Assembly (NCBI RefSeq): GCF_014270105.1
Contig: NZ_JACNMF010000002.1
Coordinates: 434,001 to 498,000 of the forward strand
DNA from: Hyunsoonleella aquatilis
GTDB lineage: Bacteria > Bacteroidota > Bacteroidia > Flavobacteriales > Flavobacteriaceae
Reading direction: 5' to 3'
Length of the DNA: 64,000 bases
A program made the position numbers and the translations under genes. Position 1 is the first letter of the stretch; each line of letters begins with the position of its first letter. Below, piece by piece: positions 1,359-50,823 of this stretch. The notes under the pieces are model-generated. The model saw nothing but the letters and a program-made list of their open reading frames with translations. It was not told the DNA's origin and made no database searches.

Positions 1359-1392
1359 AAATCCCAAGCAACACTGTTTGGGATTTTTTTTA
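1359..1392 (+). terminator. Rho-independent terminator after ahcY
   Basis: AAATCCCAA (1359-1367) pairs with TTGGGATTT (1378-1386) across a 10-nt loop and is followed by a T tract (to 1391). It ends the ahcY transcript. Confidence 0.8.
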
Positions 1393-1482
1393 TTTGGGCG
1401 TTCCCCACAAGGGGTCGGGCTTTCACTACTCAATCCCTCCTGCGTCGGGGATTTCAAACAGGCCGTTCAATCCCTAACGCGG
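1393..1482. repeat. Structured dispersed intergenic element, copy A
   Basis: This 90-bp element begins TTTGGGCGTT and ends ATCCCTAACGCGG. Relatives lie at 15012-15131 and 25215-25310. Possible stems: P1 GCGTT (1398-1402) with AACGC (1476-1480); P2 CCCC (1403-1406) with GGGG (1411-1414); P3 AATCCC (1432-1437) with GGGATT (1448-1453). The P3 bases differ in copy B but still pair. It fills most of the roughly 300-bp gap between ahcY and the methyltransferase gene; the remainder (1483-1601) is A+T-rich with nothing else recognised. Confidence 0.8.
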
Positions 1483-1601
1483 AAAAACGCAAAAGACAAC
1501 ATTTTCACGTTGTTAAAAACCAGTTTAATAATTAGTCAAATTCTTCTTTTCTAATTAAAAATAACCTCATATATTTATAACCATATATAAGGTTGTATAA
1601 T

Positions 1602-2870
1602 ATGGTTATAAAAAATTACTATTCTGTTTCCGAGGCCGCAGAAATACTGGGTAAAAACCCTGAAACTTTAAGACGATGGGACAACGAAGATAAGCTAAAA
1701 GCTGTTCGTGAGCCCATGAGCAACTACCGGGTTTATAAAAAAGAACAGTTAGAAATATTTCCAGAATTCAAATCTTATTTCAATACCATTGATGTTGGAA
1801 ATTTTGTAAATCCCCAAAAAGATTATAACGTACTGGAGCTTTTTGCAGGCGCAGGAGGCTTAGCCATTGGCTTGGAACAAGCAGGCATTAAATGCAAGGC
1901 ATTAAACGAAAATGATAAATGGGCCTGTAAAACATTAAGAAAAAATCGTCCGGAGTGGGATGTGATAGAGGACGATGTTAGAAATATAGACTTCACGGAT
2001 TTTAATGGTCAAGTCGATATTGTTACTGGTGGCTTCCCATGCCAAGCTTTTAGTTATGCCGGAAAAAAACTAGGGCTTGAAGACGCTCGTGGCACGTTGT
2101 TCTATGAATTTGCAAGAGCTGTCCAGGAAACCCAACCAAAAATTTGTGTTGGAGAAAATGTCCGAGGTTTATTGAGCCATGACGGTGGAAAAACTTTAGA
2201 TGGCATGATTTCAATTTTAGATGAAATAGGATATAATGTGGTAACGCCCGTCAAAGTTTTAAAAGCCATCCATTACAATGTGCCTCAAAAAAGAGAGCGC
2301 CTCATTTTAGTAGCCATTAGAAAAGATATTGATATTACATATAACTACCCTAAACCCTTTTCCGAAATATACACTTTAAAAGATGCCCTGAAAAAAGGTA
2401 AATTGTTTGAGAAGAATGTTCCAAAATCTGAAGGATCCAAATATCCAGAACATAAAAAAAGAGTTTTAGATTTAGTACCTCCGAAAGGTTATTGGCGGGA
2501 TTTGCCACTCGATATTCAGAAGGAATATATGCAAAAGAGTTTTTATTTAGGCGGAGGAAAAACAGGAATGGCCAGGCGCATTGGCTGGGACGAACCATGC
2601 TTAACCCTTACTTGCAGCCCAGCCCAAAAACAAACCGAGCGATGCCACCCAGACGAAACTAGGCCTTTTACGGTAAGAGAATATGCAAGGATACAAACCT
2701 TCCCCGACGAATGGGTTTTCGAAGGTTCGGTATCTCAACAGTACAAACAGATTGGGAACGCAGTACCAGTAAATTTGGCTAAGGAAATTGGATATTCAAT
2801 TATATCTTTTTTGAACAAAGTAGAGTTAAATCAACTCAAAATAAATGGTGAAAAATTAGTAGCAATTTAG
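1602..2870 (+). CDS. DNA (cytosine-5) methyltransferase with N-terminal MerR/excisionase-type helix-turn-helix
   Basis: This enzyme transfers a methyl group from SAM to cytosine C5 and protects host DNA from the neighbouring nuclease. The 422-residue protein starts with a DNA-binding fold (SVSEAAEILGKNPETLRRW, about residues 8-26), often found fused to this family. The catalytic part follows: motif I FAGAGG (81-86), motif IV GGFPCQ with nucleophile Cys147, motif VI ENVRG (185-189), QKRERL (motif VIII), and a C-terminal IGNAVP motif X. A TTG at 1593 is in frame, but ATG at 1602 is preferred. It is convergent with the nuclease gene, with 7 bp between stops. The N-terminal helix-turn-helix could also regulate its own promoter (inference). 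Confidence 0.95.
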   Translation: MVIKNYYSVSEAAEILGKNPETLRRWDNEDKLKAVREPMSNYRVYKKEQLEIFPEFKSYFNTIDVGNFVNPQKDYNVLELFAGAGGLAIGLEQAGIKCKALNENDKWACKTLRKNRPEWDVIEDDVRNIDFTDFNGQVDIVTGGFPCQAFSYAGKKLGLEDARGTLFYEFARAVQETQPKICVGENVRGLLSHDGGKTLDGMISILDEIGYNVVTPVKVLKAIHYNVPQKRERLILVAIRKDIDITYNYPKPFSEIYTLKDALKKGKLFEKNVPKSEGSKYPEHKKRVLDLVPPKGYWRDLPLDIQKEYMQKSFYLGGGKTGMARRIGWDEPCLTLTCSPAQKQTERCHPDETRPFTVREYARIQTFPDEWVFEGSVSQQYKQIGNAVPVNLAKEIGYSIISFLNKVELNQLKINGEKLVAI

Positions 2871-15011: not shown

Positions 15012-15131
15012 TTTGGGCGTTACCCCGACGCTTACGGTTGGGGTCGGGCCTGCCTGCCGGCAGGCAGGCTTTCACTACTCGCTCCCTCCTCCGTCGGGGA
15101 GCTCAAACAGGCCGTTCAATCCCTAACGCGG
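15012..15131. repeat. Structured dispersed intergenic element, copy B, with nested palindrome
   Basis: Second copy of the element at 1393. P1 GCGTT (15017-15021) with AACGC (15125-15129); P2 CCCCGAC (15023-15029) with GTTGGGG (15037-15043); P3 GCTCCC (15081-15086) with GGGAGC (15097-15102). Compared with copy A, P3 changes two pairs while staying paired and P2 is longer. A 22-bp perfect palindrome (15048-15069) is inserted between P2 and P3. The rest of the 14919-15425 gap is A+T-rich; TTAACTAGT occurs twice (15250-15258 and 15291-15299) and nothing else was recognised. Confidence 0.8.
15048..15069. repeat. 22-bp perfect palindrome GCCTGCCTGCC/GGCAGGCAGGC nested in copy B
   Basis: The palindrome interrupts the conserved GGTCGGGC-TTTCACTACT junction that is continuous in copy A (1413-1430). 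About 20 bp have been added, so one repeat family appears to have inserted into another. Confidence 0.8.
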
Positions 15132-25214: not shown

Positions 25215-25310
25215 TTTGGGCGTTCCCCTTTCGGGTCGGGCTTTCCGTTACAAGTCCTCGCGCCCTTTTAGTGGGGCGCTGTGGGCTTTCCTCTGCAATC
25301 CCTAACGCGG
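25215..25310. repeat. Structured dispersed intergenic element, copy C
   Basis: Third copy of the element. P1 GCGTT (25220-25224) with AACGC (25304-25308); P2 CCC (25225-25227) with GGG (25233-25235); P3 is a different, longer arm: GCGCCC (25260-25265) with GGGCGC (25274-25279), extended by AAGTCC with GGGCTT further out. Ends are conserved (TTTGGGCGTT and ATCCCTAACGCGG) while the middle has diverged. It occupies the gap between xth and the SUKH-like gene. Confidence 0.8.
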
Positions 25311-25350
25311 GCAGTTTCGCCATCTACAATGCTTACATAAAAGTCATCGC

Positions 25351-50734: not shown

Positions 50735-50823
50735 AACTTTTATTTGAAGCTAATCCCGCTTTCGGCAGTCGCTCTCTGCGAGGAGCTTCAACAAATGCCT
50801 CAATCGGGGCTAACCTATCTGCC
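50735..50823. repeat. Possible degenerate repeat between sufD and sufS
   Basis: The 89-bp spacer holds AATCCCGCTTTCGGCAGTCG and GCGAGGAGCTTC, with CAATCGGGGCTAA near its end that mirrors AGCTAATCCCG near its start. It resembles a repeat fragment common in relatives, but no second copy is in the window. Confidence 0.4.

What the first reader, a model, noticed from the sequence alone, without database searches (positions are those of the whole stretch)
1393..1482. Structured dispersed intergenic element present three times with covarying stems
Copies at 1393-1482, 15012-15131 and 25215-25310 share ends (TTTGGGCGTT and ATCCCTAACGCGG). The closing stem GCGTT/AACGC is kept. The internal arm is AATCCC/GGGATT in copy A but GCTCCC/GGGAGC in copy B, so two base pairs changed on both sides. 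Copy C has a longer unrelated arm, GCGCCC/GGGCGC, at the same place. The P2 hairpin is CCCC/GGGG, CCCCGAC/GTTGGGG or CCC/GGG. Compensatory change is what a selected RNA fold predicts, but a mobile palindromic element is also possible. I recall similar sequences in other Bacteroidota but know no named RNA.
Basis: partly seen in the sequence, partly recalled or inferred. Interest (0 to 1): 0.72.

Follow-up and report, generated by a model that had tools for sequence, protein, structure and literature searches.

The report
Mobile relative of Flavo-1 RNA
The repeated, folded sequence is a longer relative of the Flavo-1 RNA motif (function unknown); it behaves like a piece of mobile DNA whose fold is kept while its arms are exchanged, and it also occurs on plasmids and in phages.

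Summary
In detail: all three copies and their stems are as stated, and a fourth copy in another outer frame lies at about 50746-50815. That strand is a variant of Rfam Flavo-1 (RF01705): copy C scores 31.6 bits, E 3.2e-5, below the cut-off of 42, while a copy elsewhere in the same genome scores 51.2. It adds a closing stem and a second hairpin, making a three-way junction. Compensatory changes support the core helices. The model matches 37 of 60 relatives and 44 of 296 phylum genomes; copies also sit on Bacteroides, Phocaeicola and Moraxella plasmids, in Treponema and in viral contigs. Copies show no fixed orientation to genes and no clear target duplication. At two orthologous sites the central arm differs between species while the frame stays. 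Best reading: a non-autonomous mobile structured element; its enzyme is unknown, and none of 32 Y1 transposase loci examined carries it. Unexpected lead: in phages it often sits right behind a terminase-like gene.

The parts
1393..1482 (-). Copy A, full element (TTTGGGCGTT...ATCCCTAACGCGG on +; structured strand is -)
1398..1402 (.). P1 5' side on + (GCGTT), pairs with 1476-1480 (AACGC)
1403..1414 (.). P2 hairpin CCCC/GGGG
1417..1419 (.). P1b GGG, pairs with CCC 1472-1474
1432..1453 (.). P3 arm AATCCC/GGGATT (subtype A arm)
1361..1391 (+). terminator-like hairpin (AATCCCAA..TTGGGATT) and T run directly before copy A
   Evidence: sequence; several orthologs without the element keep it
15012..15131 (-). 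Copy B, element with arm GCTCCC/GGGAGC
15049..15068 (.). palindrome CCTGCCTGCCGGCAGGCAGG nested in copy B
   Evidence: sequence
25215..25310 (-). Copy C, element with the AAGTCC..GGGCTT type arm
   Evidence: Rfam RF01705 hit 25230-25316 minus, 31.6 bits
50746..50815 (-). Fourth copy between sufD-like and sufS-like genes: subtype B arm in the canonical Flavo-1 outer frame (UUAGCCCCGAUUG...GAAAGCGGGA)
   Evidence: neighbours

Best explanation
A non-autonomous, horizontally spreading structured repeat of the Flavo-1 kind. Its minus strand folds into a three-way junction: closing stem P1 GCGUU/AACGC, core stem P1b GGG/CCC continuing through purine-rich internal loops into a variable arm P3, and side hairpin P2. 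The invariant core is inferred to be the recognition site of a trans-acting enzyme that copies or moves it as a folded single strand. The P3 and P2 tips are free to vary, to take up other palindromes and to be exchanged between copies, probably by recombination. Phages and plasmids may carry it between species. Shown: structure conservation, spread, copies present at some and not at other orthologous sites, different arms at fixed sites, lack of orientation preference and of a clear target duplication. Inferred: movement as a folded strand, recombination as the cause of the arm exchange, and the existence of a dedicated enzyme.
For: Copy number: 79 matches in G009; matches in 12 of 12 genomes of the genus, own included, and 37 of 60 relatives. 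Many unlinked copies match copy A with shared ends at window 1393 and 1480-1482. Site A: of 8 same-genus orthologs 1 (G005) has a copy, about 40 bp further on, and 1 (G008) a 13-base remnant; site C: 2 of 8 (G001, G003) have one. Different arms at one site: at sufD-sufS the B arm is in G000, G001, G004, G006 and the F arm in G005 and G008, with G002 decayed, G007 half deleted, G003 without it; at site C the arm is of type E in G000 and G001 and another type in G003; on Moraxella ovis and M. catarrhalis plasmids one site carries arms that differ but still pair. Gene orientation neutral: 26 in line vs 36 against, p 0.25. Spread: 82 plasmid records, 47 of them over at least 80% of the query; three Treponema contigs; viral contigs. 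Structure: 66 both-sided cells vs 20.5 in shuffles and 34 vs 7.2. A published transcriptome of F. psychrophilum found Flavo-1 hits in sense or antisense of transcribed regions without preference (PMC9723704, passages read).
Against: No enzyme found. Y1 transposases have no match in 7 of 22 high-copy genomes, and 0 of 32 Y1 loci examined carry the element. No clean empty/filled pair with unchanged flanks on both sides was obtained. The suf copy has stayed at one place while the coding flanks diverged to 78-86% identity, with an almost unchanged frame, which could mean function. In phages the place behind terminase-like genes looks too regular for random insertion.
Confidence: 0.55

Rival explanations
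1. An expressed multi-copy non-coding RNA (as Rfam classes Flavo-1): the minus strand is transcribed and the core binds a protein or other RNAs.
For: Compensatory changes in the core helices; minus strand folds more stably in 77 of 90 copies; G-U exceeds A-C on the minus strand, 54 vs 20 cells; Rfam lists Flavo-1 as an sRNA gene.
Against: No orientation preference to genes; a published transcriptome found no consistent relation between Flavo-1 hits and transcripts (passages); copies differ between species of the genus; DNA parameters give the same strand preference, 75 of 90 with 1 tie.
Confidence: 0.2
2. A phage late-operon or packaging element (for example a terminase recognition site or a conserved RNA behind terL) that has spread from phages into chromosomes and plasmids.
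For: Of 50 viral loci with a full element, 15 hold a gene of one terminase-large-subunit-like cluster, and in 12 of these 15 the element starts -1 to 15 nt after its stop codon, same orientation; five members compared are 20-41% identical in protein.
Against: The 12 loci are 10 by distinct flanks; 35 of the 50 viral loci hold no such gene in the piece at hand; 1 of 5 such proteins has a PHROG terminase match, E 5.5e-6, and Pfam matched 0 of the 4 scanned; the element is inside the contig in several records. None of the 8 neighbour proteins scanned in this window matched a phage family in Pfam.
Confidence: 0.12
3. A REP-type repeat moved by a Y1 (RAYT/TIRYT) transposase of the same genome.
For: No clear target duplication; Y1 matches co-occur with the element (26 of 40 bearing genomes vs 1 of 20 others), though genome size and kinship confound this.
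Against: 7 of 22 high-copy genomes have no Y1 match; 0 of 32 Y1 loci, fetched for 80 listed matches, hold the element; two Y1 genes of the own genome have other repeats beside them.
Confidence: 0.08
4. A host-used terminator or insulator: copies behind genes end or protect transcripts.
For: Copy A and some plasmid copies follow a terminator-like hairpin; 18 convergent vs 10 divergent sites, p 0.18.
Against: Orientation neutral; copy B lies between divergent genes; copies differ between species.
Confidence: 0.05

Closest known systems
Flavo-1 RNA (Rfam RF01705; Weinberg et al. 2010)
   Same: Minus strand shares the GAUUG...GAAAGC core, the imperfect stem with purine internal loops, interchangeable arms, and the host group; window copy D has the canonical outer frame.
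   Different: Copies A-C have GGG/CCC in place of CCCG/CGGG, an extra closing stem GCGUU/AACGC, a second hairpin P2, and other outer flanks; copy C scores below the gathering cut-off and A and B gave no match.
REP/RAYT and TIR/TIRYT repeats (Di Nocera et al. 2013, PMC3733652, passages read)
   Same: Short dispersed intergenic palindromic repeats.
   Different: Longer, three-way junction, not found beside the Y1 genes examined.
MITE
   Same: Short, dispersed, non-coding, terminal stem.
   Different: Terminal complementarity of only 5 bp; no clear target duplication.
Integron attC site
   Same: Folded strand with GTT/AAC near the closing stem and variable tip.
   Different: Order is GTT...AAC, opposite to attC (definition recalled); integrase link not tested.

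Membership tests
Flavo-1 RNA RF01705 | Score at or above Rfam gathering cut-off (42 bits) | tested here: not met
   Window copy C 31.6, D 22.4, A and B no listed hit; in a chosen set of 20 loci 9 matched at E up to 0.01, 2 of them above the cut-off: L049 (own genome) 51.2 and L011 (G002) 42.6
Flavo-1 RNA RF01705 | Significant similarity of core sequence and stem | tested here: met
   Full-length model match 1-76/76, E 3.2e-5 for copy C, E 1.5e-5 for a Bacteroides plasmid copy; not for A and B
Flavo-1 RNA RF01705 | Canonical outer flanks UUUUAGCC / GAAAAAG and CCG/CGG base | tested here: not met
   Not in copies A-C; largely present in copy D
Flavo-1 RNA RF01705 | Transcribed as RNA | not testable with these tools
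   No expression data; published data inconclusive
REP/RAYT | Repeat copies flank a Y1 transposase gene | tested here: not met
   0 of 32 Y1 loci examined, 80 matches listed
REP/RAYT | GTAG or CGTC tag at one end | tested here: inconclusive
   No such tag stands out at either end in the flank profile; not scanned for formally
MITE | Target site duplication | tested here: not met
   Scan over 95 copies; best of all offsets 4 observed vs 0.9 expected, which is no clear excess
Integron attC | RYYYAAC ... GTTRRRY order (recalled) | tested here: not met
   Direct reading

The most novel reading that the evidence does not exclude
Flavo-1 and its three-way-junction form are one mobile, phage-carried structured element used by phages in connection with the terminase (DNA packaging) and scattered through host chromosomes and plasmids as selfish sites that favour their own transfer; the long-listed 'sRNA' would then be a transfer signal, not a regulator.
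Probability: 0.1. Interest if true: 0.88.

Novelty: new variant of a known kind. Interest (0 to 1): 0.6.

Why it matters
Flavo-1 has been listed since 2010 as a candidate RNA without a function. If it is a mobile structured element, many annotated 'sRNA genes' in Bacteroidota are misread, and a conserved folded core shared by chromosomes, conjugative plasmids and phages points to an undescribed mobilising enzyme or packaging link that can now be tested.

Tried and rejected
Rfam at gathering score on the window: 0 matches; Rfam on copies A and B separately: no Flavo-1 match. Target duplications: no clear excess. Y1/RAYT link: weakened as the simple explanation. Replication-strand bias: a hand comparison positions with the mixed GC skew on G009 contigs showed no clear bias; not a formal test. 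Phage genome ends: several viral copies first looked close to contig ends, but the whole records place others well inside, so this was dropped. Empty sites on plasmids: of the rows listed in six searches none showed both flanks without the element (judged from the coverage columns, not row by row on sequence); a Moraxella catarrhalis plasmid that looked like a candidate holds the element at the same place with another arm. Phage collection blastn with copy C: no match. A P4 hairpin beside the 3' end (GCGGG..CCGC) looked plausible by eye but was not tested. Literature: no paper found that calls Flavo-1 mobile or places it in phages, in searches of this library only.

Full report
Observation. 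In addition there is a fourth copy at about 50746-50815 between sufD-like and sufS-like genes, which shares the central arm module but has another outer frame. The window's genus includes Hyunsoonleella ulvae if contig length is a guide (G002:C1 and JAEPJQ010000001.1 are both 1,296,182 bases); this is an inference.

Structure. An alignment of 44 copies (A2, read on the minus strand: 41 of the 50 copies of one arm group listed, plus L140, L148 and window copy B) pairs 94.0% of cells against 87.1% in shuffles and at most 50.8% when partners are slid; 66 cells are changed on both sides against 20.5, score 0.223 against 0.114. The number of pairs with both-sided change, 8, is not above the shuffles (6.9; 120 of 500 reach it), so that measure gives no support. 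I wrote the structure onto one of these sequences, which favours it over the slid versions, and relatedness favours it over the shuffles. A set of 49 other copies, none used to build the model (A4; fitted to the model, so leaning towards it; plus orientation), gives 98.6% paired against 91.2%, 5 pairs with both-sided change against 2.6 (0 of 500) and 34 such cells against 7.2. There the innermost pair of P1 is U-A in 34, G-C in 14 and A-U in 1; the last pair of the core stem is U-A in 39, A-U in 9, G-C in 1; two P1b pairs and the innermost counted P2 pair change on both sides too. A set of 27 copies of the AAGTCC type, plasmid copies included, is nearly invariant and gives little covariation: 2 pairs.

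Which strand. The minus strand folds more stably in 77 of 90 copies with RNA parameters and in 75 of 90, with 1 tie, with DNA parameters (5 of 95 copies left out as too long). G-U pairs outnumber A-C in the minus orientation, 54 to 20 cells, but two pair columns hold 28 and 16 of the 54 and one neighbouring column holds 16 of the 20. Two mismatch pairs of the plus strand (T-C and C-T) read G-A and A-G on the minus strand, which I recall as a common RNA internal-loop motif.

Identity. Copy C matches Rfam Flavo-1 over the full model at 31.6 bits, E 3.2e-5; a Bacteroides plasmid copy at 32.6 bits, E 1.5e-5. Among 20 loci chosen by me 9 matched at E up to 0.01, 2 of them above the gathering score. 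Copy D matches at 22.4 bits, E 0.0097, with the canonical flanks. Copies A and B gave no Flavo-1 match. I therefore call it a variant related to Flavo-1, not a member by the Rfam cut-off. In Weinberg et al. 2010 (PMC2864571, passages) Flavo-1 is a table row marked y for RNA and n for cis-regulatory, Bacteroidetes. Guerin et al. 2021 (PMC9723704, passages) report that Flavo-1 hits seemed indistinctly in sense or antisense of transcribed regions and that many lay outside them. A 2022 review (PMC9029176, passages) lists it without function.

Spread. The model matches 37 of 60 relatives and 12 of 12 genomes of the genus, own included (at most 63 candidates per genome were scored, so the counts of 57-63 may be too low), 79 places in G009 (150 of 312 candidates scored) and 44 of 296 genomes across the phylum (12 scored per genome). 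Rfam's own model matches 37 of the 60, 33 above its cut-off, and 0 of 14 control genomes. blastn of copy C matches 82 plasmid records, 47 over at least 80% of the query: Bacteroides 58, Phocaeicola 11, Parabacteroides 9, Moraxella 3, Butyricimonas 1. The listed Moraxella matches cover only about a third of the query by blastn, but the covariance model finds whole elements there. In most of the copies printed, the AACGCCC end, which was not part of that pattern, is also there, while the arms are quite different.

Mobility. Many BLAST matches of copy A to unlinked places begin near window 1393 and end at 1480-1482. Site A: 1 of 8 same-genus orthologs (G005) has a copy, about 40 bp further downstream; a 13-base remnant in G008 exceeds all 200 shuffles, the other 6 do not stand out. 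Site C: 2 of 8 (G001, G003) have a copy at the same spot, with an AAGTCC-type arm in G001 as in the window and another arm in G003. The sufD-sufS site holds the canonical frame in G000, G001, G004, G005, G006 and G008; G002 is decayed, G007 keeps only the left part and G003 has other DNA. The arm is of one type in G000, G001, G004, G006 and of another in G005 and G008. A small tree of the flanking genes, with weak support at its base, allows one or two exchanges. The B-arm module is identical over 48 bases at 14 listed places in 5 other genomes of the genus, although the flanking genes are 78-86% identical between the nine genomes of the genus compared. On two Moraxella plasmids one site carries arms that differ but still pair. 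Other palindromes sit inside P2 or P3 tips in many copies. Over 95 copies no clear target duplication was seen (best offset 4 observed, 0.9 expected) and the left flank favours ATTT, but about half of these copies were found with patterns that contain TTT, which inflates this. Orientation to genes: of 90 copies with two neighbours 26 in line, 36 against, 18 convergent, 10 divergent; 3 of 95 lie in larger open frames (frames called by a simple rule).

Enzyme. Y1 transposases match in 26 of 40 element-bearing and 1 of 20 other genomes, but 7 of 22 high-copy genomes have no match, and none of 32 Y1 loci (of 80 listed matches) carries the element. Among 132 loci of diverse hosts none of the 14 largest neighbour-protein clusters looked like a recombinase to me by eye; the largest was a viral gene.

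Phages. Of 97 viral loci held, 50 showed a full element by my expression, with 43 distinct upstream flanks. A cluster of terminase-large-subunit-like genes was present in 15 of these loci, and in 12 of the 15 (10 by distinct flanks) the element begins -1 to 15 nt behind the stop codon in the same orientation. The five compared are 20-41% identical. The terminase naming rests on one PHROG match of five proteins, E 5.5e-6; Pfam gave none for four of them; a profile of the five has weak matches to solved terminases, E 0.026 and 0.031, behind an unrelated chain at 0.021. This regular place may mean a packaging link, an RNA element of the late operon, or simply the place where an insert does least harm; I cannot decide.

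Conclusion. The finding is real and largely explained as a variant of a catalogued motif, but the motif itself has no known function. The data here favour a mobile structured element over a regulatory RNA, without naming its enzyme.

Noticed in passing
L023:1462-2970 (window genome, contig C12:670113 region): Open frame of 502 aa joins a Y1 transposase-like domain (23.4 bits, cut-off 23) to coproporphyrinogen III oxidase HemF (E 5.9e-136); frames of 505-530 aa over Y1 matches are also listed in G002, G009 and G010, not checked for HemF.
   Followed up: partly
L021:1120-1860: Y1 gene flanked by an inverted repeat around CTCCGCAAAGTCTCCCGACTTTGAGG, like published TIR-flanked Y1 genes.
   Followed up: no
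L022:1850-2200: Repeated copies of a palindrome-like stretch CCACTAGCTACAAGCTAGCGG upstream of a Y1 gene.
   Followed up: no
L030, L032, L050 (GTCATTGCGA type); L041, L042 (related longer inserts): Longer repeats nested in the P3 tip, with arms around them that still look complementary.
   Followed up: no
window 1593-2870: Single frame with a MerR-like HTH followed by a cytosine-5 DNA methylase, next to copy A.
   Followed up: no
L113, L109, L119: In three Bacteroides/Phocaeicola plasmids the element lies about 350-740 bp before an ArdC-like ssDNA-binding gene; L113 and L119 share this region by similarity.
   Followed up: no
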